DNA of 64,000 bases from a virus: positions 1 through 64,000 of the IMG/VR virus record IMGVR_UViG_3300008459_000031. One strand, written 5' to 3'. The notes under the pieces are model-generated. The model saw only the letters and a list, made by a program, of their open reading frames with translations. It was not told the origin of the DNA and did no database searches. Shown here in pieces: positions 11,265 to 37,275 of this stretch. Position numbers and translations under genes: made by a program. Each line of letters starts with the position of its first letter. Within the stretch, counting starts at the first letter, position 1.

Positions 11265-11630
11265 ATGAGTCTTACAATTAATGAAGACTCTAAATATCTT
11301 AAGCCACATACATTTCAGAAGGGAGATTTAATCTTCATTGCTATTGGGAATAGAATTGATATTGCTATTTACGATACAGCTGTTAGTGATGATAAGATTT
11401 ATTATTTACACCTATGCAGCTGGTGGAATCGTTTAGATGATTACAACAAAGTATATCCTGATGGTAATAAGAGTTGGTTAAATAAAAAGGTTAATAATCC
11501 AGAAGCAGGAGCAAGAGATTTTACTAACACTCATGCAAATAAGAGGATTATACCTATCCCAAGAGAAATGTGTACTAAGATGTTATTAGAGATTCAACAC
11601 GATTACAAAAAAGCTAGAAACTTATTATGA
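11265..11630 (+). CDS. hypothetical protein before rIIA (121 aa)
   Basis: An alpha/beta protein of 121 residues with an aromatic centre (YYLHLCSWWNRLDDYNKVYPDG) and a Lys-rich C-terminal helix. No metal site, membrane segment or P-loop was seen. The start is 12 bases after the nuclease stop, and its end shares ATGA with the rIIA start, so it is co-expressed with rIIA/rIIB. It could be an rII accessory protein, but that is positional inference only. Confidence 0.6.
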   Translation: MSLTINEDSKYLKPHTFQKGDLIFIAIGNRIDIAIYDTAVSDDKIYYLHLCSWWNRLDDYNKVYPDGNKSWLNKKVNNPEAGARDFTNTHANKRIIPIPREMCTKMLLEIQHDYKKARNLL

Positions 11631-18934: not shown

Positions 18935-21900
18935 TTATTTAGTTGATGTAGCAGGTAAGTCAAACCACTTAGCAGCTGTAGCTGGATCAGATGATTTTTC
19001 AATACCCCCTAATATTGGAATCATTGCTTCGAACTTAGCTAATAATTTGCTGTCCCCTTTTTGATGTATCCCAGACTTTCTTTGGTAGTATAACCCTTCT
19101 GTATCTCCTGTGAATATAGATGGGATAGCTTTGAATGCTACCATATCAACAAGCTCTATTGCTTTTGTAACAGGACGTACAGTTGCTGTAGGTGAGTTAG
19201 CAGCTTTTAAAAATTCTATAGGACGTACAAACTGAGTTAATTCTGTCTGCATACGTAAAGCTTGATATATTGCAAAGCTTTCAAACCATGAATCATCTTC
19301 ATCATCATCATCTGATAGTGACATTACAATCAAAGCACATAGAGTCCAGAATGCAATAGATACTACAGATCTTCTCATGTTCTGCTTCTCCATGTCTGTC
19401 ATCATCTTATAAACTTTAACACCATTACCAGCATTCTTATAAGTCTCTTTTATGAATCTCCATAGAGTTTCCATTGTACCTTCTGAGATAGTACCTAATT
19501 CTAAGTCACGATGAATACCACCACGAAGACCGTTATGTCCATAATGTTTACGAAGAGATGGGATAAAGTAACGACGGAATAACATAATCAATTTACCATA
19601 CCATCTTCTTTGAAGAATAGCATCATCGAATTTAGTTTTAACCTGGTTGGTTCTTTTGTTTATCCCTGATATCTTAGCCATAAATCTACTTCTATTGAAG
19701 TTGGCTACTTTAGGATCTACTCCGTATCTACCAGTTTTTTCATCTTTAACAAATACATCCCAAAGATTTGCATCTTCTCCTTTCTCATTTTTAATTACGT
19801 TTCCATCTTTGTCTTTAAGCTTTCCTCTATAGCTATCCATTAAAGCAAGCATTCTAGTAACTGCTGTCTCATGTTCAGCAATAGTTTGTAATGCCATTGG
19901 ACCTTCTTGTAAAAGCTTTAACATTCGTGGACCAGTCTTGTCTTCTTTTGTAGATCCTAGTACTTCCCCTAATGCATCAAAGTATCTAATAGCTTGCACT
20001 ATTTTAGTTTGTGGAGCAAAGGTTTTAAAGTCTTTCAATGATCCTAATCCACCTTCACTAGTTAAGTGGTAGATACCCTTAGCCCAAGTCATGTTCTTTT
20101 TATTAAAGAACTGTTGTGAGTGTGCTTCTTCCATCAAACGTACGTTATCGAGTAACATCTGATTAGTAGATTGAAGTAAGTTACCAGCTAAGTTTGCAAG
20201 AGCAGTATAAGATGCTACTTTATTTGATAATTTATTTGATGATATTTGCTTACCAAATATGTTTAAAGCAGATTTAAGTTCTTCTTCCCCAAAGAATATT
20301 TTATCAATCCATTCTGATAAGTGCTTAAAGTTATTTCCACCTTTACCAGCAGTCTGCATTTTAGTTCCTTTTAAGATCTTTGACATTCTGTGTAAAAGTG
20401 GATTGTTGTCAGCTGTTACTGCTAATACTTCTCTTTCTTGTATGATGTCTCTCATTAACATAACAGAGCCGACAATTTCAGATTTACTCTTAAACATGTT
20501 GGCCATTCCTCCAAAGAGAATTAACGAGCTAGCTACGTCTTTACTTACTAGTTTAGAATCTACAGGATTTGTGTAGAAGATAGGAATTGTTTTATCTCTA
20601 GCTTCTTTGTTAGCATTAATAACATCTCCGTAGTTTACATCAGTAGATAGGAATTGAAACGAATCTTTAACAAAATCTTTAGCTGCTGTAAAAGCTCCAT
20701 CTTTTTGTACTTTCTCTAATCCTTCTGATCTAACTGATGGTACTATATAACTAAACTTATCCCAAGAGTTTTTAGCAAGACTATTCTGCCCTAACATCTT
20801 CTGCTTTTTGTAGTAGAAGTTCATCATGGCTTTATAGTAAGTAAATGCAGGAGCATTATTTTTTAATGCCTCATATTTAGCATTTTTATACTTATCATTA
20901 GGACGTACTGCTGAAATCTTCCACTGCTCATTTATAGGATCATACATCTTATCCATCAAAGATTTTAGTGAAGATTGTTCCCCTTCTAAATATTGAATCT
21001 TATCTGGATCTATAAGAGCTGCATCTTTTGATTTCTCTTCTACTAATTTTTTACGTACATTTTTAAGCTTCTCTGATAGTACATTATACTTTTCTTGAGA
21101 ATCTTTACTTGGTACAGAGTTTTCTTTATACCATTTAGCAACTTCTTTATAGTATTCTCTTACAGTAGATTTATTTTTTAACCACTCTTGTATCTCTTCG
21201 TCACCCTTCTCTGGTTTATTATACTTTGTAGCTAAATCTGCATACATTTTAGATTCAGCATTCTTATATCTAGTGACATCAAATTCTTGTACAAATGAAA
21301 GAAGAGTTACTTTCTCTGACTTTTCTTTATCAGGATTGTAAACCATGTATTCAACTTCTTCTAAAATATCTTCGTTGAATTTATTAGGATTTAAACCACT
21401 TCCTTTTGCTTTCTCAAATTCTTTATAAGCTGCAGCTAGTTCATAGATATCATTCTGTGTCTCATCATTTGCTTGATACATTTTATCTTTAAGCATAGAT
21501 GCAAACATTTGTATCCCTACTTGAGAAGAATAAATAATTGGATCTAGAAGATAACTAAATGCAGACTTATCTTTTTGAGCTTCAGTAAGTTCTTTGATTA
21601 ATGTATCTCTTGTAATCAGCTTATTTTCTAACTGCTTTATATTCAATGCTTTTAATGCAGCAAACTCATCAGCTTTATCTAGCTTTTGAGATTTTATTTT
21701 ATTGTACTCCTCATCTCTTTCAATAGCTACTAAACGATCATTGTCTTTGATATTTTGTATGAGTTTATTAATCTCATCATTTATATCATCGTTTGAATAT
21801 TCCATTAGCAAGTCAGCCATAAGTGGGATACCTACTTCTCTATAGGTTTCCTCCACCATATTCATTCTATGTATAGCTTCAGTAATTTTCTTTTCAAATA

Positions 21901-23482
21901 ATGAAAGTGATTTAAATTTAGGGTCGTCTTGTAACTGTTCTACACTTAAACCTTTTTTAAGTCTTAACAAGTCTTTTGAAACTGCAAAACCAATTTTTTG
22001 CATTATACTATCTTTCCCATCTACTCCACCATAAAAGCTTCTTACCCATTCACTTACTTTGTATAATTCATGAATAAGCTGTAATCTTTCTGTGGTAGGA
22101 AGAACTTCATTATATCTCTCATTAATTTTATCTAAGTTTTCTTCAGCTCTGTCTGCAAGTCTAGATGCATAATTTACAAACTCTACTAATTCTTCTACAT
22201 CTTGAATCTTATCAAGTCTTTTCTGCATGAGAGATAATCTTTCTATTGCAGTTTCATTTAAATCACCAGGAGTACTTTTAAGTTTGTTGATGCTCTCTTG
22301 TGTTGCAATACGAACATCATCTACAATCTTCATGAAGTCTTCTTCTCTCTTATTTACTTTACTATCAGCCATTAAGAAAGTAATAGAACCTTTTAAATCT
22401 GCAGCAGTATATCTTCTTTCTAGAAGCATACGTGTCAGATCTTCAACTGCAGATGGTTTAGCCTCTGTACCAAATAACTTTGATAATGCTCTTACAACTC
22501 TATTAAATATTCTTTGGAAGAGATTAGGGTTTTCTCTTTTAATCTTAGCCCCACTTAATCCCATAGCAGATACTAGAACTTCTTTATTTAAAGCTTTCTC
22601 ATCTAGTTCTGGGTATGCTTCTTTAACTTTTTGATAAAGATTAGTAGACTTCAATTCATTTATAGCTCTTACTACTACAGGATGATCTTCCCCTAAAAGT
22701 TCTACAAGAATATGACTGAATTCGTGGATATGAGTATCCTCAGTCATAAGTAGTGGATTTAGAACAACTGTTAATATTTTACCTGGAGTGTTAATAACTC
22801 TACCTTTTACTTCTAGAGTAGGGTCAATTTTAACTTCTATGTTTATCCCAGCTTTAGCAAAGTCAGATATAAAATTGTTAATATCTTTTTGTATAGAAGG
22901 CATCTCTGCTCTTTCCATATCTTCAAGATCTAAACGACTATCTAAATCTTCGAATAAATCTAGTTGTTTTCCAGCTTCTCTAGATAATTTTTTTGTTAGT
23001 TCTTGTTCAGCTTTTGCTATGCTCAACTCTTCTTTACTTAATTCAATTACTCTTGGTCTAAGTATAGGGTTAAATTCATAAGCATTTAGAGCAAACTCAT
23101 ATGGATCTACTCTGTTAGGTAACTTAGTGGCTACATTTTTAGTCAGAGCTAGAGTTGCTTTTTGAGAAATTTGGACATCGTAATGAGTCTTACCTTTATC
23201 TTTATATGGGGTTATTACTGCAAGTGGAGTAGGAGAACCATAATATAAGGCTGCTACTGCATTTAAATCTGCTATCTCTTGAAATAGAACATCTTGCATA
23301 GTAACCGATATCCTATTCCCAAGACCTATAACACCATCATTAAGAAGAATGTAATTGATCGTATAAGGATCTACTACATCGTTATTTGCTAACTGATTAT
23401 CTATGTATTCAATAACCTTACTAGTCGTAGGAGATTTTCTTACATTTCCGTTTTCGTCTGTTTTAAAGTATCCACATGCCAT
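18935..23482 (-). CDS. giant probable virion cargo protein with zincin-like domain (1515 aa)
   Basis: Last gene of the virion block, next to the virion RNA polymerase. HEFSH at residues 253-257 (HExxH) within THIHEFSHILVELLG is a zincin-type metalloprotease site and is preceded by a beta-strand pair (GRVINTPGKILTVVLNPL) as in that fold. The middle 700 residues are long charged helices and coiled coils. Near the C-terminus a hydrophobic helix (about 1373-1391) is followed by SDDDDEDD. In characterised crAss-like phages the proteins encoded beside the RNA polymerase are packaged in the capsid and delivered with it. A role in cleaving cargo or host proteins after ejection is inferred. A possible promoter box lies just before the ATG. 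Confidence 0.75.
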   Translation of the reverse strand: MACGYFKTDENGNVRKSPTTSKVIEYIDNQLANNDVVDPYTINYILLNDGVIGLGNRISVTMQDVLFQEIADLNAVAALYYGSPTPLAVITPYKDKGKTHYDVQISQKATLALTKNVATKLPNRVDPYEFALNAYEFNPILRPRVIELSKEELSIAKAEQELTKKLSREAGKQLDLFEDLDSRLDLEDMERAEMPSIQKDINNFISDFAKAGINIEVKIDPTLEVKGRVINTPGKILTVVLNPLLMTEDTHIHEFSHILVELLGEDHPVVVRAINELKSTNLYQKVKEAYPELDEKALNKEVLVSAMGLSGAKIKRENPNLFQRIFNRVVRALSKLFGTEAKPSAVEDLTRMLLERRYTAADLKGSITFLMADSKVNKREEDFMKIVDDVRIATQESINKLKSTPGDLNETAIERLSLMQKRLDKIQDVEELVEFVNYASRLADRAEENLDKINERYNEVLPTTERLQLIHELYKVSEWVRSFYGGVDGKDSIMQKIGFAVSKDLLRLKKGLSVEQLQDDPKFKSLSLFEKKITEAIHRMNMVEETYREVGIPLMADLLMEYSNDDINDEINKLIQNIKDNDRLVAIERDEEYNKIKSQKLDKADEFAALKALNIKQLENKLITRDTLIKELTEAQKDKSAFSYLLDPIIYSSQVGIQMFASMLKDKMYQANDETQNDIYELAAAYKEFEKAKGSGLNPNKFNEDILEEVEYMVYNPDKEKSEKVTLLSFVQEFDVTRYKNAESKMYADLATKYNKPEKGDEEIQEWLKNKSTVREYYKEVAKWYKENSVPSKDSQEKYNVLSEKLKNVRKKLVEEKSKDAALIDPDKIQYLEGEQSSLKSLMDKMYDPINEQWKISAVRPNDKYKNAKYEALKNNAPAFTYYKAMMNFYYKKQKMLGQNSLAKNSWDKFSYIVPSVRSEGLEKVQKDGAFTAAKDFVKDSFQFLSTDVNYGDVINANKEARDKTIPIFYTNPVDSKLVSKDVASSLILFGGMANMFKSKSEIVGSVMLMRDIIQEREVLAVTADNNPLLHRMSKILKGTKMQTAGKGGNNFKHLSEWIDKIFFGEEELKSALNIFGKQISSNKLSNKVASYTALANLAGNLLQSTNQMLLDNVRLMEEAHSQQFFNKKNMTWAKGIYHLTSEGGLGSLKDFKTFAPQTKIVQAIRYFDALGEVLGSTKEDKTGPRMLKLLQEGPMALQTIAEHETAVTRMLALMDSYRGKLKDKDGNVIKNEKGEDANLWDVFVKDEKTGRYGVDPKVANFNRSRFMAKISGINKRTNQVKTKFDDAILQRRWYGKLIMLFRRYFIPSLRKHYGHNGLRGGIHRDLELGTISEGTMETLWRFIKETYKNAGNGVKVYKMMTDMEKQNMRRSVVSIAFWTLCALIVMSLSDDDDEDDSWFESFAIYQALRMQTELTQFVRPIEFLKAANSPTATVRPVTKAIELVDMVAFKAIPSIFTGDTEGLYYQRKSGIHQKGDSKLLAKFEAMIPILGGIEKSSDPATAAKWFDLPATSTK

Positions 23483-23486
23483 AGTA

Positions 23487-23494
23487 CAAATATA
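23487..23494 (-). promoter_or_regulatory. TATATTTG box 4 bases before the 1515-aa gene
   Basis: On the minus strand TATATTTG ends four bases before the ATG. It fits the Bacteroidota -7 element, but a TTTG at -33 is not evident. If used, initiation would fall at or near the start codon, giving a leaderless mRNA. The same arrangement precedes the 2222-aa and scaffold-like genes. Confidence 0.3.
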
Positions 23495-23499
23495 CGGTA

Positions 23500-26400
23500 T
23501 TATATTGAGCAGGACATATTTCCAGCTTCAATTGGTAATTTTCCTCTGTCTAATAAATAAGTAGTGCTTCTTGCTATGTTGTTCTTTATTTGAGGAAGTA
23601 CTTCTTTATTTTGAATCTTCATATAATTTAACCCATAAAGCTTCACACTACCTTTAGTTGTATACGTACCTTCTAATCTTCCGTATTGAGTCATAATAGA
23701 TCCATCTCCAGATTTTACTTGGTCTAACTTAGCAAATACTGCACTTGTACCAGTCTTACGATTTCTTACTACTATAAAGTTATCAGTGCTCTTATCTAAA
23801 ATAGTCTCTGTTCCTGAAGAAAGTGTATCATTACTAACCCTTTTAACTAAGTTACTTCCACCAGCTCTCATCTTTCCAAATGCAGCCATGTAGTTAATAA
23901 TGTCTTGTGAATCAAAGTACTGAGATTGTCTAGCTTTAAATGCTTCTTGTCTGAAGAAATCTAAAATGCTTATTCTATCTTGTACTTCTACTCCAGGTTC
24001 TGATGGGCCTTGCTCAACCTTCATAGGAGTTGTGAAGAATTCTAGAGGAACAATATCAGCATATGAACTAGCTCCTTGTCTAAATCCATTTACAAAGAAG
24101 CTGTGCATTGCTAGTTTTATAGCAAAGAGTTTGACTTCTCTTATACCAGCAGCAACTGATGGATCAGTATAGTTACCTTCACTATCCATTGTTTTATCTC
24201 CTGGTACATAGAATTGTGGGTTATACAGTAGATTATACAATCCGTCTGTATAAGATTGCTTTTCAGTTGCAGTAGCTTTAAATGTATTATCAAACTTAAT
24301 TCCATAGTATCTAGCTTCTGTATCTGTATCAGGTTCTAAGTTAGCTATGAATGGGTTTGTATTCAATGCACGATACTTTGTTTTTAAAGCTTGTAATTTT
24401 GTATAAATATTATTATCTGGCTTATTATACAAGTTTGTCATGCTATCCATCAAAGAAGCAAATGGAGAGCCAGGTTTCATAAGCATCATGAACATCAAGT
24501 TGTAATCAATCAACTGATGCATTTCAGGAGTTAACTCTTCAGTACTTACATTCCCTAGTAGCCCTTTCTTAAATAGTTTAAAAGATTCAGATAATCTAGT
24601 AGGGAAGAATACTCCTGCAAAGTCAAGACCGTTTCTTAATAGATTATCGTAACCTCTTTCTAATCCATAATTAGACTTCTCACCGATAAATTGGTCAGTG
24701 ACATTATCCATAGACCCTGGTTCAAAGAATATTGGAGTCTTTAGAGAATCTTCATTCTGATCAAATGTATTAGCTCTATCTAAATAAGATTGTATAGAAC
24801 CTATCCTTCCCAATCCATCCATTGAATCTGGGGTTACTCTCTTCCCTAGTTTCATAAGAGTTTTACCAGCTTCATAGAACTTCATGAAGTTAGCAAGCAT
24901 CTTTAATTGTTCATCTACATTTCTATTCTCTTTACTTAAGTTTTCTAATTCTTCTACATTCATGTTAAATGTACCGGGCTTATTTAGATTTAAGTAGCCA
25001 TTTGGATCTTTTAGTTTAGAAGTAAAAATTTTATAAGCTGTTGTAAGATTCATCAAATTACCAGCTTCGGTGGTCTCAAAGTAATTTGTAAATTCTTTAA
25101 CCAATGGTTGATTTAAGAACAAAGAACAAAGTCTTGAAGAATACTCTGGGAAGAATCCTGAGAATAAAATTCTGATACGAGATGTTAAAACTGTATCGTT
25201 AAGTTCATATTGTACGGGAAACTTAGCAGCATCCACAGCAGCAGATAAGAATAATGATATGCTTTTATCTGTTGGATAAGATCTGCTTGTAGTATCAAAT
25301 GGATTTTCATAAGAAGTCTTTATATAATCTCTATATTCCTCTCCATTAATTTTGATAGAGTAATCGTTATGTATTCTAACATTACCATGTTGTAATACGT
25401 TACGTGCAGCTAGTGCATTTGCATAGATACCACGAAGCTTATTTCCAAGAGTACTACGACGAGCTGTAATAGCTTCTGTGTTATAATCACTCCAATCTAA
25501 TTCTTTTCCAAGGTCTGGAGATTTAGATTTAATCTCATCTACAACAGTATTCAATGTAGTATCATCAAGTGGAGTAAACACTTCTTTGAAGTGAGCAGGG
25601 TTTGAATACACTGCCTCCATCAAATCTAATATTACATTATTAATCTGTTCATTAGACAACTTCGATAAGTTCTTTGATTTTATTATACTAGCATAATCTA
25701 CAGATACTTTTTCTAGTTGTTTAGTTTCTTTATTAACTCTAACTTCTGGGAATAAGAGATTTAACTTATCGACGTCAAAGTCAGATCCCATCAATTTAGT
25801 TAGCTGTCCCGGTACAACAACTGCTTTTGCATAGTTGTTCGGTAAGATTTTAGCAATCTTAAGCATGACTACAGAAGCTTTATCCTGATTAGGGATACGA
25901 TAACCTACAATTCTTCTAAGTTCTTCTGGGATAGAGTCTAAAGATTGTCCTGGTTGTATTCCAAACTTACGAGCTACATCCTCACGGATCATAACTTCTG
26001 CATGGATTACTCTTCTACCATCTTCAGATATTTGTAAGAACTTTAATGCACCACTTCCATCAACTTCTGATCCACCTAATTGTGTAACCTGAACTGCTTC
26101 AAACCCTTTAACTTTCTGTTTGAATACTTCATTGTTTATTACAGACATTATGATAGACTCATACTTCTTATTGTATAGAGGTATATCAAGTGGAGCTACA
26201 AATCTAGGAGTACCATCATTTTCAAATACAATATCTAAAGCTCTTTCATAGTTAGAGTGAAGCTCTTTTGTTCTAGCTTGCTTGAGTACTTTTTCTCTTA
26301 CAGTTTTTAATATATCTAACTTAGCTGCATTTATCTTATTGATATCATTGCTTTCAGAAGCTTTATAAAGCTCAGTTAATCCAAATTCATCTTCAACCTT

Positions 26401-29400: not shown

Positions 29401-30603
29401 AGTATCGTATTTAAACTTAGAATCAATGTATATACCAGCATCTGTAAGTCTGTTTACTAAAGCTGTTCTCCAACCTTCTTGAATAATATTTCCAGATTTA
29501 GATTGTACTACATCTTCCCAAGTGGTGTATATGTTTTTATAAACTGTTCTCTTACGTAGATTGTCCCCCATTGCAAAAACTAAATTGTTTTTAGCAAGTA
29601 CATCTCTAAGAGCTTGCAGATTTTCTTGAGATTTATTTTCTGTATAGGCTTCTTCAGCAGCTATAGTTTCAATCATTGCAGCATAGTCTGTTGACATGTT
29701 TAATTTAGAACCATCTGCTTTAGCATATATTTTTGTTAAGAATGAGTTTGCTATTGCTCCTTTATTAGTTCCAGATCCTAAAGCAATTGTAGATTCAAAA
29801 CTATTTTTATAGCTATTTCTCATCTTTAGAAAGTCTGTATACAGAACATCGATAGCATCTGTAATAGTCTTATCTCCTAATCCAGGACGACTTAAGTATG
29901 CTTTTTTAGTTCCTTTAAACTTTTCTGCATTTCTGAATACTCCTCTACCAAGAATAGAAGAGTTCATTTTATTACTTTCAATTAAAGAATAAACCTGCTT
30001 TAATCCAACACTGTCACTAAACATTGCTTTAATGAAGTTCCACAAATCTCTAAAGAACTTAGCAATCTTACCAGGAATAGACTTTTCAGTAGCTTGATCA
30101 GTAAGAACATACTCTCTGAATTCCTCAGACATTTTTTCTTCAAGAACTAACTTATAAGCATCTTCATCAGAAATTTCTGGGAATTGATTTTTAATAGCAG
30201 CTATTTCAGAGTCAGTAGGTTTTCCAAAACTTTTCTCAGCTTCTGCATATAACCCTTGTCTTTGCTCTTCACTAAGCATTGTTCTAAATACTAAGTGATA
30301 AGCTTCGTGATACTCTGTACCAACTTCAGCAGCAGACCAAAGGTATATCGATGCATTCTCTACATATCCGTGAACTTCTTCATTTCCAACAGATTGTGCA
30401 GTCTCAAAGATATTTACAGCATCTTCTCCAAATCTTTCTGCTAACCAAGACTTTGCTTTATTAGATCTATCAGAATTATTTACATAAAACATTGAAGGAA
30501 CATTCCCCATGTATTTATCCCAAAGGAAATATGCTAAGTTTTCACCTTGAACACTTACAAGGTCTTTCCATTCTTTAGATGATGTGTTTGGACAAAATGC
30601 CAT
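23500..30603 (-). CDS. giant virion RNA polymerase with N-terminal zincin-like domain (2367 aa)
   Basis: Single-subunit crAss-type RNA polymerase. DFDVD at residues 1608-1612 is the metal-binding DxDxD of the second double-psi beta-barrel. It sits in a context (KILPNNYAKAVVVPGQLTKLMGS before it, KLNLLFPEV after it) that I recognise as the crAss-like catalytic loop. The best-studied relative, phi14:2 gp66, is carried in the virion and transcribes early genes after injection. At the N-terminus HEAYH (99-103) is an HExxH zincin site followed by an acidic helix, so a protease-like domain and a polymerase share one chain. The size is in the range of the known family (about 2,200 aa). It lies between two other giant genes with gaps of 3-17 bases. 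Confidence 0.9.
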   Translation of the reverse strand: MAFCPNTSSKEWKDLVSVQGENLAYFLWDKYMGNVPSMFYVNNSDRSNKAKSWLAERFGEDAVNIFETAQSVGNEEVHGYVENASIYLWSAAEVGTEYHEAYHLVFRTMLSEEQRQGLYAEAEKSFGKPTDSEIAAIKNQFPEISDEDAYKLVLEEKMSEEFREYVLTDQATEKSIPGKIAKFFRDLWNFIKAMFSDSVGLKQVYSLIESNKMNSSILGRGVFRNAEKFKGTKKAYLSRPGLGDKTITDAIDVLYTDFLKMRNSYKNSFESTIALGSGTNKGAIANSFLTKIYAKADGSKLNMSTDYAAMIETIAAEEAYTENKSQENLQALRDVLAKNNLVFAMGDNLRKRTVYKNIYTTWEDVVQSKSGNIIQEGWRTALVNRLTDAGIYIDSKFKYDTDLETPSEAEDELDQLNDEFAIIDEAVGKIYGQSSMEISPAKRLTARVRELLSTIMSNEYNSLGVKTYLNRDVVFKELLNIFSGKQTYTAMRNALVQEVKLKPQLRNVLNFLNELTESEKAMIFSAFALSNTEFVMLKQKVDDKVNYVEVFNPNRKDIPTAIAEKWKNTLISEVDGMALYRKDIITKEDGTVIETLTTNKKRVLDAAKAWKEAEKLLPKFGNVNVANINGQVNPVVVHLAETMFQLGLYIGDNTNVGDTQKILQVIADNGIDGKTGVDSMRTIKTQLLSFIRQVGEFTRDKSSELAEFVSVKNDRNLDFITARKSAAIDFAKIFKSTMPIAGISFVNGKGKAIYGTNTETHMAQIVSILKEKSQNSAELLKEYLKDEFINVKGRPEFTSVLFKHLMDGKFLEEFGVFDFDASKMGSEYEEALAYEDFSEVDTMVTLINAFINNRTDSEYTYIAVPIQSDRDKFTFVKVPRISKNAFSKQFMSHKDLIKAQIVQDLVRVNQAKAVVKSALNGKIDYADLEEGYHTASGDPTRLVENGQYLGNAFKESFFQFRAKNADGKYIVTDETLQDDPGVRINGVTQMSDKIMDYVDKSMDAESQKLFDARLDRMTNEMLEYFSSQALALEAELKKAKKLGEIGMSGAIGVDLKGLLKGFVVENAIMRNEIVKLFRGNRALHKSQEDFYKRMGHLTTPGTKMVMVGDISESYGMMKEFNEIAMRDIRMNLTPEQTVETNAQADNIYIGLVKSGVSEEEAKTISDAFRPGKYESTDAQAFISLDMHRSIMQGLGKWEREDEEAYKAYKVTGEFVYQKGFVPDGKKVGDPVPTLGHKGYYEKMSYNNVGRTLSVDSQKNSYFVLLKSYTKNSPFLEDIRRRMESVEEYTGLEPVHVVNFVSGKKLSKRNIYRHTGRLGMLGEAGVNTHNSSGLRFPQFIPSAKEDPKNALNRQIKKNMVANVEDATMYQISPGILDINISGQDLKDLYHASIEEKLARDTKKVEDEFGLTELYKASESNDINKINAAKLDILKTVREKVLKQARTKELHSNYERALDIVFENDGTPRFVAPLDIPLYNKKYESIIMSVINNEVFKQKVKGFEAVQVTQLGGSEVDGSGALKFLQISEDGRRVIHAEVMIREDVARKFGIQPGQSLDSIPEELRRIVGYRIPNQDKASVVMLKIAKILPNNYAKAVVVPGQLTKLMGSDFDVDKLNLLFPEVRVNKETKQLEKVSVDYASIIKSKNLSKLSNEQINNVILDLMEAVYSNPAHFKEVFTPLDDTTLNTVVDEIKSKSPDLGKELDWSDYNTEAITARRSTLGNKLRGIYANALAARNVLQHGNVRIHNDYSIKINGEEYRDYIKTSYENPFDTTSRSYPTDKSISLFLSAAVDAAKFPVQYELNDTVLTSRIRILFSGFFPEYSSRLCSLFLNQPLVKEFTNYFETTEAGNLMNLTTAYKIFTSKLKDPNGYLNLNKPGTFNMNVEELENLSKENRNVDEQLKMLANFMKFYEAGKTLMKLGKRVTPDSMDGLGRIGSIQSYLDRANTFDQNEDSLKTPIFFEPGSMDNVTDQFIGEKSNYGLERGYDNLLRNGLDFAGVFFPTRLSESFKLFKKGLLGNVSTEELTPEMHQLIDYNLMFMMLMKPGSPFASLMDSMTNLYNKPDNNIYTKLQALKTKYRALNTNPFIANLEPDTDTEARYYGIKFDNTFKATATEKQSYTDGLYNLLYNPQFYVPGDKTMDSEGNYTDPSVAAGIREVKLFAIKLAMHSFFVNGFRQGASSYADIVPLEFFTTPMKVEQGPSEPGVEVQDRISILDFFRQEAFKARQSQYFDSQDIINYMAAFGKMRAGGSNLVKRVSNDTLSSGTETILDKSTDNFIVVRNRKTGTSAVFAKLDQVKSGDGSIMTQYGRLEGTYTTKGSVKLYGLNYMKIQNKEVLPQIKNNIARSTTYLLDRGKLPIEAGNMSCSI

Positions 30604-30606
30604 TGG

Positions 30607-33600
30607 TTATTTATTTGTAATACATTTATTTTTCTTTCTCTCCCCTTCTTCAGCAGATTCTTTTATTACGTCTGATAAGCTTTGCATAGCTCCACCCATT
30701 GGATTCAAGCCTCTTAGTTCTGCTTCCATCTCTGCTTTAAGAGCTTTTTGCATTTCTGCATTAGGCTTTAAGTGTGCAAAAGGGTTAGAAGGGTCCATCA
30801 AAGGTACAGATTTTTGTTCAGTTTTTGGAGCAGCACCAAATAAATCTGCAGGTAATTCATCAACAACTACATCTAAAGTAGATTGTGCAACTGGGGCAGG
30901 AGCTGCCGGTGTAACAACAGCTGGTGTTGTGGGTTGAGTTTGAGTTTTAGAAAGTGATCCAGGTCCGTAGAAAGATTTAGCATTGTATATCACATAAAAA
31001 GGATCTACTTTTTGTTTACCAATTATATGATTTAAAACTTTAACTCCTTTTACTTCAGGGTTTGATTTCTGAAAATCATTGAATAGGTTTATAATTGCAG
31101 GACTTTGATTTGCTTTTTCTGTATCATTGTACTCAGCATCAGGATTGTCAGATATGTAAGATCCTGTAGCTGGATTGCTAAATTTATAACCTTTTGCTTT
31201 TAGCTCTTCATAAATTTCTTTCTCAGATTTATTAGCATCTATAACTATAAACTCAGATTCATTTATCTCACCTGCAATTGGCTGACCATATCTTTGAACA
31301 AGGAATGGAGTAGTAGTAGAAGATGCATTTAAGCCATCTCCAAACTGGCTGATTTGATCTTTACCTCTTTGGAAATTACCAAAATCAAAGTTTTGTGGAG
31401 CAACACTTGTGTGATGATACACAGTAACTACATTTTCTGGTGTTGTAGTTGCAGGTATTGCATTATCAGCAAGCCTAACAATTCTTAATATTCCATATTT
31501 AGAATCATTAGGTTCTTCAAAAACACCATTTTCATCTATAGCATCGATAGTTTGAATACCTCCAGCTTGATTTTTGTAATCCAAACTTGTAGAAGCCCCA
31601 TCATATCTTATACCTTCAATTTTTGTAGTTGCCTCAGAAGTTCTTTTGCTGCTACTTGCTGTAATAATTATAGTATCACCTACTTTCCAAGTAGAAGGTG
31701 AGGCTTTTTGAGCAGGAGCTAGTGTTGCAGGAGCAGTAGGGGCTTCGATGCTATCTAATACTTTTACAGCATTTGATACTTCTAATTGAGCTTGAGTTGC
31801 AATTCCTCCTCCAACACCTGTTAATGGTGTGAATTCAATTCCAACATCATAGAATGGGGATTTGTTAACACTGCCTGGAGAGTCAGTAGTTAAGATTACA
31901 TTAGCCCCTAGTCCTTCAGTTCTAGGTTCTGTGAATTCTTTATCACTATTTAAGTAATCAAAGTATGAAGGATACTCAATACCAGTAAGAGCACTAATAT
32001 AAGGTTCTGTGTTATTAATTCTATTGATATCAACTTGATACTTCTTATCCATAATAATGTCTAAGAATTCTTGTTTTAAGTTTGGAGTTACTCTTGCATA
32101 CTCAGCTTTCTCTCCTTTTATTGTAACTAGAGATTTCCATCCTTTTTCGTTAGTACCTAGCTCAGAGAATGTGAACTTAAATGGTTGCCCTAGTAAAGCT
32201 TTCTTAAGTTCATCTTCATTTATTCTGACAAGTTTGTTTGCAGATTTAGAGTAGAAAGTAAATAATACTTTACCATCTGTAAGAGTAACTTGAGACATGT
32301 ATTTCTTAAAGTCTTCTGTAGATATGTCTTCCCCTTCATTTAAATCTATTGCATCGTTTTCATCTGCAACTTCTACAGGAAGTTTATTTAATCCTACAAT
32401 CTCCCCGAATAGTTGAGCCTCAGGGTTTTCCTTAATTAAATGATTAACTGCAATTGTTCTTCCTTCTTCAGTCATAGACTTTGTAGAAGCCATTACAAGA
32501 GCAGGATTACCATTAGGATCTTTTACTATAATTGCTACTTGTCCAAGTGCAACATTGCTTGTATCGAATGGTAGATCATTTCCATTCTGATCCATGAAGA
32601 CTCGAATACCATCTTGAATTCTTACTACAGCAATATTTGAAGAACCTTTTACAATGTTTGAAGATGGATAGAAGAATATCTGACCATTAGATGTTCTAGC
32701 ATTAGCTATATTCGTAGAGTTAAAAAGCTTTCTACTAATAGTAGAAGATGCAGTAATTCCTTGCTTATAAAGATTATATATGTCTTGTCTAGATAATCCA
32801 GTATTCTCATCTGCTTTATAAGCAGCTAACATTCCTACTCTAACTGATTGACCATTAGGAAGTTGGGCAACTACGTAGATAGGAACTTGTTCCCAATATC
32901 TATCTTCTGTTAAATCTTTTTTGTTATTTTTTGTTTCAGGATTTTCAGAATTCCACCAATCACTAGATTCATCTACTTCAAATGTAATGACTGTACCTGC
33001 AGGAGTTATGTCACTATCTGTTAGCATTTCTGGATAAATAGAGACAGTCTCTCCACCTACCTTTTGCTCTATCATATTAGATACAGGATCTCCAGATTCA
33101 GTTACAGTTTGCTCTGTAAAATTAGAGTTAGATTTAATTTCCCCTTTAGCAAGTGGAGCATCTACAGGACCTTCTGCAACTACAGCAGTTACTTGTGGTT
33201 CTTCAGGATCTTTTTGATCATCGTCGAATGGAGATGGAGTCTCATTAAATGTTCTTTCTATCTGCTCCCACTGCTCTCTTTTCTGACGGATTATTTCAAG
33301 TTCTTCTGCTGTGGTTGTGCCATCCACCCCTTCCTCCGTAGATCCTGCTCTAGAATCGATATTCGTTGCTTCAGGCTCTTGCCCTTCAGTTGCAATGTCA
33401 GTTCCTTCGGTAGCGTTACTTGCTTGACGAAGTTTTTCAGATTCACGTTCTTCATTTATTCTTTGTATTAGTTCTTTAGATTTACGAATACTCTCTTCCC
33501 TTCTCTTAATCTTATTCTGAGTATTTCTAATTTCTTTCTTAGCAGCCTCTACATCTTGTCCAGGATAAGTTCCATCTGCTATCTTTTTAAGTTCAGTTTC

Positions 33601-36600
33601 TACAAGTTTTAACTGAGCTATTTCATCCTCTAATCTGCTAATTTTAGATTCTTCCCCTTTAGTTATTTCATCAACCTCTTCTTCTAGTGGGGCTTGTTCG
33701 ATTTCTTCTGCAACAACTTCTTCATCAGTATTTTCTTGAATATTAGAAGCTTTCTTTCTTTTAGCAAGTTCTTTAATTTTCTTAGTTAATAAAGCTTTGT
33801 GAGACTTTTTAATAGCCTTTAAAGTTTTAACATTTCCATCAGCATTAAACTCTGCTTCTGTAAATCCGGCTTCCATAGCTACTTGTCTTTCAGCAGCTAG
33901 AATCTCATCTATCTCAATTAAGTCTTGTTTAATTACTTCAATCTGAGCTCTTATCTGACCATCTGTTAGACCAGCAGTTTTACCAATGTCAGTAGTAGCT
34001 ACTAATTTTTCAAGTTCCTCTTCCATTTCAACAATGGTATCTGGATCTTCTACAGAGTCTAATACTTCAAATTGTTTAGCCTTACCTTTTAACGTATCTT
34101 CTTGAGCTGCTACCTCTTTCTTATGTTTCTTAAGTACATCTTCTGTAATAACTTCTCCACGAACTCTTTGAATTTCTTTAAACTCTTCTGCAGACATGTT
34201 AGCTATAGCTTCTACATCTCTAATAGAAGATGCCTGTACAAGAATAGCATAAGTAATTGTATCAGCTATTGCTGAATCTTCTTCATTCTGATCATCTAGC
34301 ATCCAAGTAACTTCGTTACCTGTAGCAGCATCAGTTAATCTAACTCCTATTCTATTACCTTCTTCATCATAGATAATAGCATCAGTTGGAGTTTCATTTA
34401 GATTTAAATATGTTCTTCCATTTATAGTAAATATAAATCCACCAGAAGATACTGATATATTTCCTAAAGCTGCGGCTTCTGCATCTGATAGTTCTTGTGC
34501 ATATTCTGTATAACTTGCTGTTGGAGCAAATTCATCTCTTCTTTGCAGTTGTCCATTCTGATATTCTACAGTTCTTTCAGCAGTTCTTTTCTTATCTCTT
34601 GCATCTTTCTCCTTTGCTAATGCTGCTGCAGCAATTGGGGGAAGAGATTCTTCATCAATAGCTTCTAACATATCGTCAGTCATGCTACTAAATTTAGCTC
34701 TTTCTTCTTTTTCTAATTGCTCTAATTCTTCTACTTTTGCCTCAGCTGCTGCTATTATTTCTGCAGGAGCATCTTCAGGCATATTCTCTCTAACTTCATC
34801 AGCTGTTTCTGCATTCTGAACTACTTGAGCAGCTCTATCTGCAGAAGCCTTCTTCTCTTCCTGCTGTCTACGGGCATATTCAGCTTCTACATATAAATCC
34901 ATGTTTTCTGGATTACGACGTAAGTTATCAAAAGATGTTACAATACCTTCTCTTCTTTTTACTAAGTTCTGCAGGGCCCATGTGGCAGTTTGAAACTCTT
35001 CAGCATCTGCAGGGTTTAATGCATACTTAGCTTGAAATATCTCATTAAATTTTTCAAATAGTTTAGCTTCAGGAGATATTGTAGATTTAAATGCAAAGCT
35101 TAGTTTACCCTCTTCATCTATATTTACTTGACCTATTTTTACTCTGTAAGTAAAATCTTCTTTTGATATTGCCCCTAACTCTGGAGCAATTTTAACTAAG
35201 TGGTCATATACATCATCTATCTGTTCGTCTATAACATCTATGTCCATTAAGCCTGCATGCAGTACTTGAGAATATTGATTTCTAACTAACCTTTGAAGTT
35301 CTTTGTTATTTTTAGTTTCTTCGTTTTGAAAAGAATCTAAAAGTTTTGGGAGTAAAGTATTTTTAGGTTGGTATTTAGCTAAGATATCTTGTACTTGCTT
35401 AGATCTTTTTATAGATAATTCTACTTTATTTTTAACATCTTGTACAAGTTCAGATTGAGTTTTACCAGTCTGAGTTTTTAGACTAGAATTCATTCTATAT
35501 CCAAATGCTTTTTTAAACTCATCTTCTGACATAGATGCAGCATCATCTAACTGCTCCAACATGTAATCAGTAGCACCCATAGCATTCATTCTTGCTGCTT
35601 CTGATCTAATTAGTTGAACACGAGCTCTTTCTGCATCTTGTTTTGCAACAGCTTTTTGAACTGGTGTAGCTTCTTCTGATTCTAAAACTTTATTATTCTT
35701 TTCTATTATGTTTACCAATGCTGTATTATAAGCATTAGATTCCATATTTTCTATAACTTTTGTTAAGCCACCACTGTTTATATATTGTAAAACTTTAGCT
35801 GTATTAGCTGTACGAGCTTTTGCTAGTTTAGAATCTGCTCCAGCTATACGACTTACAGCTCCTGTTCCTCCCCCTACAATAGCTCCAATCAATATATTTT
35901 CTAAACCTTCTTTACTTCCTAATGTTTTACTTAAGGATTCAGACAATGATTTAGACATGTCTCCAATACCATCACTAAATTTATCTCCATAATAATCTCT
36001 TGAAAACTCAGATGCAGCAAATTGAGAACCTTCTTGGAATCCTTCTGTAGCCATATTTTTAACAGGGCCTCCAAATATTCTAGATGATTTTGTCCAAGCT
36101 TTTGCAAACTTACCATCCATTCCAGCTTCAACTAATTTTCCAGAAGCATCTTTGGTAGCTTTATACATCTGACCTTCTCCAATAGCTGCTCCCTTAAACA
36201 TTTTACCAAACATAATAATGTTAGATGTAGCTAGGATTGGAAGGTTAATAGCAAAAGCAGCATTACCAGCAGCATCAGCAGATTCCTCTATCCCGTTCAT
36301 TACATCAGTTGGGACTTCTTGGCCAGGATTTTCTTCTTGCCATTTAGCTACCTGTTCTTCTATAAATCTAGTTCTAGTCTCACGAGCTTCAACAGATGCT
36401 TCTGCTAATGACATTTGAGTAGCTACTCCTAATCTTTGAGTAGCAGTAGATATCCTAGCCATTCTAGCAGCTTTTTCTAGATCTTCTCCAGTCTGTATAG
36501 CTTTACCAGCTCTGTATAATGCTAGCTGTCTACTACCTAATGTCGAAGCATCTTCTACAACATTAGCAGCTCTTGCACCTTTTTCAGCTAATCCTGCAAT

Positions 36601-37275
36601 ATCTAATGCAGTATCCCCAGCTTTTAAGGCTTTACCAGCTCCAGCAATTCTGCTAGCTAACCCTAGTTCTCCTGTTCCAAGCCACATTGTAGCAATAGAA
36701 CCTAATGTATAACCAAGACCGTTAGCTACTTTGTCTGCCCAAAAGTTTGCAGTACCTAGATTAGATAGTAAGCTTCCGTTTATTTCTTCTTGTGTATAAT
36801 AGTTTGGTAGCTTCTCTTGAGCCCAGTCATTTACTGCATCTACTTGTTTACCTACAAAGTTGTCATAGTATTCACCACCAGTAGCTAATGAACCTAGACC
36901 TGCTAATACTCCTACTGTGTTTTCATAGATAGCTCCTAAAGTAGTAATACCAGCTTTAGTTAATCCATTTACCCACTTATCATATGTGGTTTGCCTTTGA
37001 GCTCTTTCTTCATTTAAATCTGCAAATGGATTAAGTGGTACCCCATATTCTCTGTAGCTTTCTAATGGATCTGTATAAATAGCAGATACATTTTGAACCC
37101 TAGAAGCAATATCAAAAGGGTTTATATTTCCTGTATTCGGAGCTACAACTGGTTTACCAAAAAAATCTTCTACAAAACTTTTTTTTGGGTCTGCATTATC
37201 TCCAGAGGGAGATACTATATTTGTTTTAGGTAATCCTGTGATCTCACTTATAAAGCTTGTAGATTCTTCTGACAT
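30607..37275 (-). CDS. giant probable ejected protein with ADP-ribosyltransferase-like C-terminus (2222 aa)
   Basis: N-terminal 500 residues contain several glycine-rich hydrophobic stretches (for example ILIGAIVGGGTGAVSRI near 460-476), suggesting membrane insertion during DNA ejection. The centre (about 550-1400) is Glu/Lys/Ala-rich coiled coil. A C-terminal segment (about residues 1945-2105) reads as an ADP-ribosyltransferase-like fold: YHHTS, then GDGLNASSTTTPFLVQRYG, ending with PFYVIYNAKSF. The His and Tyr positions look right; the usual final Glu is not obvious, so activity is uncertain. Pro/Thr/Ala-rich linkers flank this domain. The combination of ART-like and zincin-like domains in neighbouring giants fits the polyvalent-protein concept of phages. 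Confidence 0.75.
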   Translation of the reverse strand: MSEESTSFISEITGLPKTNIVSPSGDNADPKKSFVEDFFGKPVVAPNTGNINPFDIASRVQNVSAIYTDPLESYREYGVPLNPFADLNEERAQRQTTYDKWVNGLTKAGITTLGAIYENTVGVLAGLGSLATGGEYYDNFVGKQVDAVNDWAQEKLPNYYTQEEINGSLLSNLGTANFWADKVANGLGYTLGSIATMWLGTGELGLASRIAGAGKALKAGDTALDIAGLAEKGARAANVVEDASTLGSRQLALYRAGKAIQTGEDLEKAARMARISTATQRLGVATQMSLAEASVEARETRTRFIEEQVAKWQEENPGQEVPTDVMNGIEESADAAGNAAFAINLPILATSNIIMFGKMFKGAAIGEGQMYKATKDASGKLVEAGMDGKFAKAWTKSSRIFGGPVKNMATEGFQEGSQFAASEFSRDYYGDKFSDGIGDMSKSLSESLSKTLGSKEGLENILIGAIVGGGTGAVSRIAGADSKLAKARTANTAKVLQYINSGGLTKVIENMESNAYNTALVNIIEKNNKVLESEEATPVQKAVAKQDAERARVQLIRSEAARMNAMGATDYMLEQLDDAASMSEDEFKKAFGYRMNSSLKTQTGKTQSELVQDVKNKVELSIKRSKQVQDILAKYQPKNTLLPKLLDSFQNEETKNNKELQRLVRNQYSQVLHAGLMDIDVIDEQIDDVYDHLVKIAPELGAISKEDFTYRVKIGQVNIDEEGKLSFAFKSTISPEAKLFEKFNEIFQAKYALNPADAEEFQTATWALQNLVKRREGIVTSFDNLRRNPENMDLYVEAEYARRQQEEKKASADRAAQVVQNAETADEVRENMPEDAPAEIIAAAEAKVEELEQLEKEERAKFSSMTDDMLEAIDEESLPPIAAAALAKEKDARDKKRTAERTVEYQNGQLQRRDEFAPTASYTEYAQELSDAEAAALGNISVSSGGFIFTINGRTYLNLNETPTDAIIYDEEGNRIGVRLTDAATGNEVTWMLDDQNEEDSAIADTITYAILVQASSIRDVEAIANMSAEEFKEIQRVRGEVITEDVLKKHKKEVAAQEDTLKGKAKQFEVLDSVEDPDTIVEMEEELEKLVATTDIGKTAGLTDGQIRAQIEVIKQDLIEIDEILAAERQVAMEAGFTEAEFNADGNVKTLKAIKKSHKALLTKKIKELAKRKKASNIQENTDEEVVAEEIEQAPLEEEVDEITKGEESKISRLEDEIAQLKLVETELKKIADGTYPGQDVEAAKKEIRNTQNKIKRREESIRKSKELIQRINEERESEKLRQASNATEGTDIATEGQEPEATNIDSRAGSTEEGVDGTTTAEELEIIRQKREQWEQIERTFNETPSPFDDDQKDPEEPQVTAVVAEGPVDAPLAKGEIKSNSNFTEQTVTESGDPVSNMIEQKVGGETVSIYPEMLTDSDITPAGTVITFEVDESSDWWNSENPETKNNKKDLTEDRYWEQVPIYVVAQLPNGQSVRVGMLAAYKADENTGLSRQDIYNLYKQGITASSTISRKLFNSTNIANARTSNGQIFFYPSSNIVKGSSNIAVVRIQDGIRVFMDQNGNDLPFDTSNVALGQVAIIVKDPNGNPALVMASTKSMTEEGRTIAVNHLIKENPEAQLFGEIVGLNKLPVEVADENDAIDLNEGEDISTEDFKKYMSQVTLTDGKVLFTFYSKSANKLVRINEDELKKALLGQPFKFTFSELGTNEKGWKSLVTIKGEKAEYARVTPNLKQEFLDIIMDKKYQVDINRINNTEPYISALTGIEYPSYFDYLNSDKEFTEPRTEGLGANVILTTDSPGSVNKSPFYDVGIEFTPLTGVGGGIATQAQLEVSNAVKVLDSIEAPTAPATLAPAQKASPSTWKVGDTIIITASSSKRTSEATTKIEGIRYDGASTSLDYKNQAGGIQTIDAIDENGVFEEPNDSKYGILRIVRLADNAIPATTTPENVVTVYHHTSVAPQNFDFGNFQRGKDQISQFGDGLNASSTTTPFLVQRYGQPIAGEINESEFIVIDANKSEKEIYEELKAKGYKFSNPATGSYISDNPDAEYNDTEKANQSPAIINLFNDFQKSNPEVKGVKVLNHIIGKQKVDPFYVIYNAKSFYGPGSLSKTQTQPTTPAVVTPAAPAPVAQSTLDVVVDELPADLFGAAPKTEQKSVPLMDPSNPFAHLKPNAEMQKALKAEMEAELRGLNPMGGAMQSLSDVIKESAEEGERKKNKCITNK

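What the first reader, a model, noticed from the sequence alone, without database searches (positions are those of the whole stretch)
18935..37275. Three adjacent giant genes look like polyvalent ejected proteins
Together they carry two HExxH sites, an ART-like domain, an RNA polymerase, glycine-rich membrane stretches and a C-terminal membrane helix. The mix is the pattern described for polyvalent proteins that disarm a host at entry. The 1515-aa protein in particular has no other assigned function.
Basis: partly seen in the sequence, partly recalled or inferred. Interest (0 to 1): 0.7.

Follow-up and report, generated by a model that had tools for sequence, protein, structure and literature searches.

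The report
Cysteine-coupled train of ejected phage proteins
These three giant genes are the polymerase cargo that a crAss-like phage carries in its particle, and comparison across many relatives suggests the cargo is one cysteine-poor chain which, wherever it is cut into separate proteins, carries a matching pair of end cysteines that probably couple the pieces end to end.

Summary
The three genes are real, at the stated coordinates, and are the virion RNA-polymerase cargo block of a crAss-like phage: orthologs of crAss001 gp47/gp50/gp49 and, in the same order and strand, of phi14:2 g067/g066/g065, which others found in virions. So "ejected" is supported by orthology, but the 1515-aa protein is not unassigned. 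The HExxH of the polymerase lies in a zincin-like domain; the 1515-aa one is a homologous, weaker case. Both are pseudoenzymes in some relatives. The window's ART-like stretch has no profile support, though a sister phage carries a true ART-PolyVal insert. "Disarming the host" is unproven.

The surprise is elsewhere. The block is cysteine-poor (window: 6 Cys in 6,104 aa). Relatives encode it as one, two or three proteins. At split junctions the upstream protein ends with a Cys and the downstream one starts with a Cys: 61 of 61 in the first set, 119 of 122 calls in a second, two of the three failures being mis-called junctions. None of 235 counted outer ends has one. Split/fused states changed at least 13 times on the tree. 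I infer head-to-tail disulfide couplers. The bond itself is untested.

The parts
30607..37275 (-). gp47-like cargo protein, 2222 aa, first (N-terminal) piece of the chain
   Evidence: blastp to crAss001 gp47 (E 9e-18) and phi14:2 g067 (E 1e-8); order and strand as in phi14:2
35872..37059 (-). conserved Gly-rich N-terminal region of gp47 (residues 73-468)
   Evidence: profile found in gp47 orthologs
   Evidence: 7 related loci found; no ART profile match
30622..30624 (-). only Cys codon of gp47, 5th residue from the C-terminus: proposed tail coupler of junction 1
23500..30603 (-). virion RNA polymerase, 2367 aa, middle piece
   Evidence: matches crAss001 gp50 and phi14:2 g066 and PDB 6vr4
30592..30594 (-). 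Cys4 of the polymerase: proposed head coupler of junction 1
30490..30603 (-). N-terminal tag MAFCPN..W..L (residues 1-38), found at the polymerase head here and at the gp49 head in other lineages
30028..30462 (-). Z1 zincin-like domain (residues 48-192), HEAYH 99-103, candidate third ligand E156
   Evidence: alignment A4 and AlphaFold2 model
25075..27429 (-). RNA polymerase core
   Evidence: profile search
25768..25788 (-). GSDFDVD catalytic motif
23509..23511 (-). Cys2365 of the polymerase, 3rd residue from the C-terminus: proposed tail coupler of junction 2
18935..23482 (-). gp49-like RNAP-associated cargo protein, 1515 aa, last piece
   Evidence: matches phi14:2 g065 (E 1e-29) and crAss001 gp49 (E 9e-27)
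23474..23476 (-). Cys3 of the gp49-like protein: proposed head coupler of junction 2
22469..22885 (-). Z2 domain (residues 200-338), HEFSH 253-257, candidate third ligand E301
   Evidence: alignment A5, homologous to Z1 by hhalign, probability 96%
19106..20890 (-). conserved gp49 core
19307..19372 (-). C-terminal hydrophobic helix (residues 1371-1392)
   Evidence: hydropathy scan

Best explanation
The three genes encode one functional cargo unit of a crAss-like phage: gp47, virion RNA polymerase, gp49, packed in the head and ejected at entry so that early phage genes are transcribed by the phage's own polymerase. The unit behaves in evolution as a single chain (6,104 residues in the window, 4,630-5,677 in the triple fusions, longer in a few lineages such as cr272) in the order gp47 - Z1 - polymerase - Z2 - gp49 core, encoded as one, two or three proteins. 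Where it is cut, one Cys near the new C-terminus and one Cys near the new N-terminus are present; the rest is Cys-poor. Most likely these two cysteines form a disulfide that couples the pieces head to tail, so that they are packed in fixed ratio and threaded through the narrow tail in fixed order, and are released by reduction in the host cytoplasm. Scarcity of other Cys would limit wrong pairings. Shown: orthology, order, the Cys pattern, its tracking of gene splits. Inferred: the disulfide, the threading role, release by reduction. The zincin-like domains are intact in this phage and may cut or bind something, but their catalytic sites are dispensable for the chain elsewhere.
For: Orthology and virion location. 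Cys census of window and 16 named phages. First IMG/VR set (79 loci, 77 used, 62 clusters at 90% identity): junction 1 split with both Cys 21 of 21, junction 2 split 40 of 40, gp47 N-terminus 0 of 29, last C-terminus 0 of 59 (L059's apparent junction 1 excluded as a frame break); 9 of 9 triple fusions have no Cys in the protein. Second set (158 loci, 124 usable, 105 clusters, none within 90% of the first set): junction 2 71 of 71, junction 1 48 of 51, outer ends 0 of 63 and 0 of 84. Three further loci not counted (L081, L094, L103), where another ORF separates polymerase and gp49, also have tail and head Cys. On a tree of 77 polymerase cores the split/fused state changed at least 8 times at junction 1 and 5 at junction 2; L061, inside a clade of triple fusions, is split again and has both Cys. 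Junction 1 lies before Z1 in the window and after Z1 in crAss001, cr128, Dulem41 and L108, with a Cys pair in each. Outside Crassvirales: phi17:2 gp039 (gp47-like) tail, gp038 head and tail, gp036 (gp49 core, E 8e-54) head; Leptolyngbya phage Lbo-JY46, two pieces, tail and head. Fused junctions: from the gp47 region to the polymerase core 21 of 24 fused chains of the first set have no Cys (3 Cys in 53,353 aa), and from polymerase core to gp49 core 14 of 15. Controls: 3 of 32 other ORFs in the first-set loci have a head Cys, 1 of 32 a tail Cys, 0 both; in the window 0 of 46 other ORFs have a head Cys and 5 of 46 a tail Cys. Virion disulfides exist in crAss001 in other proteins (passages). Comparison: N4 gp50, gp51, gp52 have no Cys in 4,294 aa.
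Against: No disulfide was observed; all evidence is comparative. Host cytoplasm is reducing, so when the bond would form is open. Exceptions: L204 (its only gp47 Cys is about 34 residues from the end); L266 and L272 were mis-called junctions, and L266 has its only Cys at residue 11 of what is then probably an outer N-terminus. Fused chains are not always Cys-free: in the second set 9 of 18 chains fused at junction 1 have one or two Cys somewhere in the roughly 2,200 aa between gp47 region and polymerase core, and in the first set L105 has six between polymerase and gp49 core. Two of 12 triple fusions have internal Cys (L177 one, L146 three). Some lineages are not Cys-poor (cr272 39 and 21 Cys, L099, L106). 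In Intestiviridae another cargo protein also has a lone tail Cys without an evident partner. In 9 of the 21 first-set and 5 of the 51 second-set junction-1 cases the upstream piece was taken as gp47 by position, without a profile hit. Sequences share ancestry, so the naive log10 probability of -246.6 is not a real probability.
Confidence: 0.65

Rival explanations
1. Polyvalent effectors: the giants are mainly host-takeover proteins, with zincins and ART acting on host targets at entry.
For: Zincin-like Z1 with intact ligands in the window; ART-PolyVal insert in the sister phage polymerase; variable C-terminal region of gp47 with GNAT-like stretches in relatives, weak; polyvalent proteins described as delivered by phages (abstract and passages of PMC5512222).
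Against: All three proteins are explained by the conserved transcription cargo. Z1 and Z2 are pseudoenzymes in a part of the relatives. The window ART is not supported.
Confidence: 0.2
2. Z1 and Z2 are the processing proteases that separate the pieces of an ancestral polyprotein; splitting of genes replaced cleavage.
For: Where detected, Z1 lies between the gp47 region and the polymerase, and Z2 between the polymerase and the gp49 core; processing by zincin-like domains is a role proposed for polyvalent proteins (PMC5512222 abstract and passages).
Against: Intact sites do not go with fusion: Z1 fused 17 live, 5 dead, 2 undetected; split 16 live, 1 dead, 5 undetected; Z2 fused 6 live, 7 dead, 2 undetected; split 19 live, 10 dead, 11 undetected (the one split-dead Z1 row is L059, a frame break). 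Triple fusions L054, L055, L063, L078 have both sites dead.
Confidence: 0.2
3. The terminal Cys pairs serve something other than a head-to-tail disulfide for threading: locking the folded polymerase complex, binding a metal or another virion protein, or linking copies to each other.
For: Only sequence data exist; two thiols could also meet a metal or a third protein; in the folded complex the ends may simply lie close, as they must in the fusions.
Against: Counted Cys occur at ends that face a partner and not at the two outer ends, which links between identical copies would not predict; one Cys per side without an obvious conserved neighbouring ligand fits a disulfide better than a metal site (reading). 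Locking of the folded complex by the same disulfide is not excluded.
Confidence: 0.25
4. The pattern is a by-product: ejected proteins are Cys-poor, and end Cys are tolerated by drift.
For: Cys depletion alone is seen in N4 gp50-gp52.
Against: Outer ends have a Cys in 0 of 88 and 0 of 147 cases, against 61 of 61 and 119 of 122 split junctions with both; at least 13 split/fused changes on the tree; other window ORFs have a head Cys in 0 of 46 and a tail Cys in 5 of 46.
Confidence: 0.03

Closest known systems
Crassvirales virion RNA polymerase cargo (crAss001 gp47, gp49, gp50; phi14:2 g065, g066, g067)
   Same: Order, sizes, homology, polymerase core, virion proteins. The block of large multidomain proteins is in print (PMC7886860 passages), as are 1-3 large subunits and sizes up to about 6000 aa (PMC10136315 passages); the LMMB record names fusion proteins and a zincin protease.
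   Different: The end-cysteine pairs and Cys depletion were not mentioned in the passages I read or found by the searches made; the gp47/polymerase boundary lies before Z1 here, after Z1 in crAss001.
Polyvalent proteins with MPTase and ART domains (PMC5512222)
   Same: Giant multidomain proteins delivered at invasion, zincin-like HExxH domain, RNA polymerase; sister phage has ART-PolyVal.
   Different: No Pfam MPTase-PolyVal match; window ART unsupported; zincins dead in part of the relatives.
Coliphage N4 virion RNA polymerase gp50
   Same: Giant ejected polymerase with a HExxH domain (PMC12633501 abstract and passage); Cys-free, as are gp51 and gp52 (that these two are its ejection partners is recalled).
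   Different: One polypeptide of 3,500 aa with a different (T7-like, PMC5512222 passage) polymerase, no end cysteines on gp50-gp52.
Lightbulbvirus phi17:2 gp039/gp038/gp036
   Same: gp47-like first piece, gp49-core last piece and Cys pairs at both junctions.
   Different: Middle piece only 517 aa with no polymerase-core profile hit; its record does not place it in Crassvirales.

Membership tests
Crassvirales virion RNAP cargo block | single-chain polymerase with DxDxD motif homologous to phi14:2 g066 | tested here: met
   GSDFDVD and matches to crAss001 gp50, phi14:2 g066, PDB 6vr4
Crassvirales virion RNAP cargo block | gp47-like and gp49-like partners adjacent in conserved order | tested here: met
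   same order and strand as phi14:2 g067-g066-g065, converging on plus-strand genes
Crassvirales virion RNAP cargo block | proteins packaged in the virion and ejected | not testable with these tools
   virion presence known for orthologs from MS; not shown for this phage
Polyvalent proteins | zincin-like metallopeptidase domain with HExxH and a downstream Glu (polymerase, Z1) | tested here: met
   motif, E156, model resembling IrrE, ArdC, PPEP-1 at Z 5 to 6 (below the Z 8 the tool advises), three ligands co-lost in one clade
Polyvalent proteins | second zincin (1515-aa protein, Z2) | tested here: inconclusive
   HEFSH and E301 present, homologous to Z1 (hhalign 96%), but structural matches weak, Z at most 5 and mixed
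Pfam MPTase-PolyVal | significant match to a Pfam metallopeptidase model | tested here: not met
   none for the four window proteins; in the first 25 families listed for 42 Z1 and 44 Z2 rows only weak single or double hits, e.g. Tox-MPTase4 (1 row, 0.004), SprT-like (2 rows, best 0.064)
Pfam ART-PolyVal (PF18760) | match to PF18760 in the window protein | tested here: not met
   no match; met only in sister locus L007, E 2.4e-10, inside its polymerase
Pfam ART-PolyVal (PF18760) | homology of the window stretch to a proven ART-PolyVal domain | tested here: inconclusive
   hhalign probability 0.5% with a shallow alignment
Cys-coupled cargo chain (proposed here) | tail Cys and head Cys at each split junction, none at outer ends | tested here: met
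   window: gp47 Cys at -5, polymerase Cys at 4 and -3, gp49 Cys at 3, outer ends none
Cys-coupled cargo chain (proposed here) | disulfide between tail and head | not testable with these tools
   needs protein chemistry

The most novel reading that the evidence does not exclude
Crass-like and some other phages build a single ejectable cargo chain by end-to-end disulfide couplers between otherwise Cys-poor giant proteins. Gene fusion and disulfide coupling are interchangeable solutions to the same need: covalent continuity for ordered, stoichiometric threading of proteins through the tail, with reduction in the host as the release step. The rule may be older than Crassvirales, since phi17:2 and a cyanophage follow it with partly different pieces.
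Probability: 0.6. Interest if true: 0.88.

Novelty: new variant of a known kind. Interest (0 to 1): 0.76.

Why it matters
How giant proteins are packed into a phage head and driven through a narrow channel is open. [quoted passage not shown] The same rule could mark members of ejected chains in uncultured phages, including phages without a recognisable polymerase.

Tried and rejected
ART in the 2222-aa protein: Pfam, PDB sequence search, phage tblastn and profile comparison gave no support, so I do not count it as an ART. Relatives of that stretch from L112-L115 gave no ART match either.

Zincin cleavage at the junctions, my first mechanistic idea: rejected as a general rule because live and dead sites do not follow fusion.

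A conserved N-terminal tag (MAFCPN..W..L) as a cargo sorting signal: it moves between the polymerase head and the gp49 head, but many heads carry only the Cys, so I kept it as a side observation.

Fold search: Foldseek against PDB gave no match at E 0.001 or better for either model; the VIA second look gave a list dominated by zincin-fold proteins for Z1 at Z 5 to 6 (with some toxin N-terminal domains, such as row 2) and a mixed list at Z 5 or less for Z2. The PDB profile searches with A4 and A5 gave nothing convincing.

Scans with gp49-core alignments were not possible, so the second set came from polymerase alignments with another first row.

Rows dropped before counts: first set, L096 and L097 (frames broken by stop codons) and L059's junction 1; junctions at contig edges or not resolved were not counted (of 62 clusters, junction 1 was 24 fused, 22 called split including L059, 16 edge or unresolved; junction 2 was 40 split, 15 fused, 7 unresolved). 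Second set, 34 of 158 loci without 400 aa of polymerase core in one frame; of the 105 clusters, junctions at edges or unresolved were not counted. The scans themselves were capped: each kept the best 80 of about 550 relatives found. The second set is not wholly independent of the discovery genomes: L120 and L200 match the cr50 and phi14:2 queries at 100%; in the first set L101 has a core identical to crAss001. In the tree, states of 11 rows were set by reading, L059 was set to fused, and those of the window and 14 named phages by hand; the program warned of a long-branch pair (L099 with cr126).

Literature: abstract or passages only of PMC10172136, PMC5512222, PMC7886860, PMC12633501, PMC10136315; search listings otherwise. 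The papers on the phi14:2 polymerase (PMC12127119) and Yutin 2018 (PMC5736458) were not held, so they could mention the cysteines. Searches whose listings showed no report of the coupler; for the protease.

Full report
What was checked. The window is part of a 71,630-base virus record. The three ORFs are present at the stated places with one HExxH each in the 1515-aa and 2367-aa proteins and none in the 2222-aa protein. Scans of the full proteins gave no Pfam family above its cut-off and one significant PHROG, of unknown function, for the 2222-aa protein.

What they are. The 2367-aa protein is the single-chain crAss-type RNA polymerase: GSDFDVD motif, matches to crAss001 gp50 and phi14:2 g066 and to PDB 6vr4. 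The 1515-aa protein matches phi14:2 g065 and crAss001 gp49 over its C-terminal 600 or so residues. The N-terminal part of the 2222-aa protein matches crAss001 gp47 and phi14:2 g067. In phi14:2 the three genes have the same order and strand and end against plus-strand genes as here, and all three are noted as found by MS/MS. In crAss001 gp47, gp49 and gp50 were detected in virions by mass spectrometry and are thought to lie in the capsid cargo zone and to pass the tail partly unfolded (PMC10172136, passages). The neighbours upstream, 791 and 1300 aa, sit where the other cargo proteins lie; the 1300-aa protein matches crAss001 gp45 weakly (E 5e-4).

The HExxH sites. Z1, in the polymerase N-terminal part, matches the C-terminal HEAFH domain of crAss001 gp47 (33% identity, E 3e-9). 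Where I found it, it lies between the gp47 region and the polymerase, now on one side of the gene boundary, now on the other, and inside the protein when the two are fused. An AlphaFold2 model (mean pLDDT 74.8; ten-residue blocks 73 to 96 from residue 41 to 210) has strands before the HExxH helix and a further long helix that holds E156, and its list of solved neighbours is dominated by zincin-fold proteins at Z 5 to 6 (Certhrax 4gf1 5.9; IrrE 3dte 5.5, rmsd 2.7 over 88; ArdC 6sna 5.4; PPEP-1 5.2), with an edema-factor complex at rank 2. These Z values are below the level at which the tool advises trust. Separate support comes from co-loss: in six rows of one clade H99, H103 and E156 become W, R and T together (6 of 42 rows). 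Z2, in the 1515-aa protein, aligns with Z1 (hhalign probability 96%) and has E70, H73 and E117 (alignment numbering) in 44 of 44 rows, but the first His is Glu in 18 of 44; its model (pLDDT 83.9) finds only weak, mixed neighbours.

ART. A sister locus (L007, about 88% identical in the polymerase) carries an ART-PolyVal domain inserted between the polymerase's N-terminal tag and Z1 (PF18760, E 2.4e-10).

The cysteine rule. Looking at termini I noticed that gp47 ends in a Cys, the polymerase begins and ends with one, and gp49 begins with one, while these proteins have few other Cys. In the window the three proteins have 6 Cys in 6,104 aa (0.098%), four of them at these places, against 87 in 5,918 aa (1.47%) for the 24 plus-strand ORFs listed and 63 in 8,748 aa (0.72%) for the other minus-strand ones. 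In the 16 named phages the same holds at each unfused junction I could read; several of their proteins were cut by the stretch fetched, and in crAss002 the head Cys follows an internal Met of the annotated protein. In crAss001 and cr128 gp47 is encoded on the opposite strand from the polymerase, and the pair is still present.

Test on a larger set. A polymerase alignment found 79 IMG/VR loci, the best 80 hits of 550. All four architectures occur: three proteins, gp47-polymerase fused, polymerase-gp49 fused, and all three fused. With 77 loci in 62 clusters, junction 1 when split had a Cys in the last 12 residues upstream and in the first 9 residues downstream in 21 of 21, junction 2 in 40 of 40; the gp47 N-terminus had one in 0 of 29 and the last C-terminus in 0 of 59; 9 of 9 triple fusions (frames of 4,630-5,641 aa) had none in the protein, L075's one Cys lying before its first Met. 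In 9 of the 21 junction-1 cases gp47 was identified by position only. Positions vary (head 3 to 8, tail -1 to -9) and both Cys codons are used, which speaks for selection on the residue rather than on a nucleotide signal. As a control, of 32 other ORFs in these loci 3 have a head Cys, 1 a tail Cys and none both.

Fused junctions. Between gp47 region and polymerase core, 21 of 24 fused chains of the first set have no Cys; between polymerase core and gp49 core, 14 of 15 (L105 has six). In the second set it is 9 of 18 and 4 of 5. So fused chains are usually, not always, free of Cys there.

Second set. Two further scans ranked by other queries gave 158 distinct loci, 124 usable, 105 clusters, none within 90% of the first set, though L120 and L200 match the cr50 and phi14:2 queries at 100%. 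Junction 2: 71 of 71. Junction 1: 48 of 51; of the three failures L266 and L272 are not gp47/polymerase junctions and in L204 the only gp47 Cys lies about 34 residues from the end. Outer ends: 0 of 63 and 0 of 84. Three more triple fusions have 0, 1 and 3 Cys in about 5,600 aa each.

Independence. On a tree of 77 polymerase cores the state of junction 1 changed at least 8 times and that of junction 2 at least 5 (quick search, no bootstrap; some states set by inspection). L061, nested in triple fusions, is split again at junction 1 and shows KKDCK before the stop and MPFCPN after the start. The cut lies upstream of Z1 in the window's group and downstream of Z1 in the crAss001 group, so the junction was probably not made once. 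The rule also holds in phi17:2 and Lbo-JY46, whose records do not place them in Crassvirales.

How it most likely works. A pair of lone cysteines that is present where two pieces must be joined, and usually absent when they are fused, is best read as a coupler. In the virion it would make gp47, polymerase and gp49 one covalent chain, N-terminus of gp47 first, that can be threaded through portal and tail in order; in the host cytoplasm reduction would release the polymerase. Scarcity of other Cys would limit wrong bonds. The bond, its timing and the threading role are inference. Disulfides are known elsewhere in the crAss001 virion, in gp57, tail hubs and rings (passages). N4 gp50, gp51 and gp52 are also Cys-free but carry no such end cysteines.

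Relation to known work. The cargo block, its large subunits and its polymerase are known, and the record of crAssphage LMMB already names fusion proteins and a zincin protease. I found no statement of the cysteine rule in the searches and passages named under Tried and rejected; two key papers were not available to me.

Noticed in passing
L007:2280-9983 (residues 61-235): A Pfam-significant ART-PolyVal domain is inserted in the polymerase of a close sister phage, between the N-terminal tag and Z1; the window lacks it there.
   Followed up: partly
L011:3950-4900: The gp47 C-terminal region of the sister phage holds an extra stretch that looks acetyltransferase-like by eye, with an apparent frameshift, yet the reading frame before the polymerase still ends in KKKEC; phi14:2 g067 has a sub-threshold GNAT match in the same region.
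   Followed up: partly
window 30490-30603; L016, L017, L018, L020, L022, L028: A 38-residue N-terminal tag (MAFCPN..W..L..LW) sits at the polymerase head in the window group but at the gp49 head in other lineages: it travels with the gene boundary.
   Followed up: partly
L027:24333-26918 and L026:548-2221: In Intestiviridae another upstream cargo protein has a lone Cys near its C-terminus with no evident partner.
   Followed up: no
L110:10355-18601: Leptolyngbya phage protein of 2748 aa with two HExxH motifs and a gp49 core but no polymerase-core profile hit; follows the Cys rule.
   Followed up: partly
L002:35361-37142: phi14:2 g070 (annotated tail protein) has two HExxH motifs and no Cys.
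   Followed up: no
window 55578-56051 and 167-586: Small Cys-rich ORFs (12 Cys in 157 aa; 9 Cys in 139 aa).
   Followed up: no
window 11627-14449: 940-aa protein with RIIA-like PHROG matches (best E 1e-18).
   Followed up: no
L054, L055, L058, L059, L063, L078, L088: A clade in which both zincin-like domains are dead; in Z1 the three ligands are replaced together by W, R and T in the six rows aligned.
   Followed up: yes
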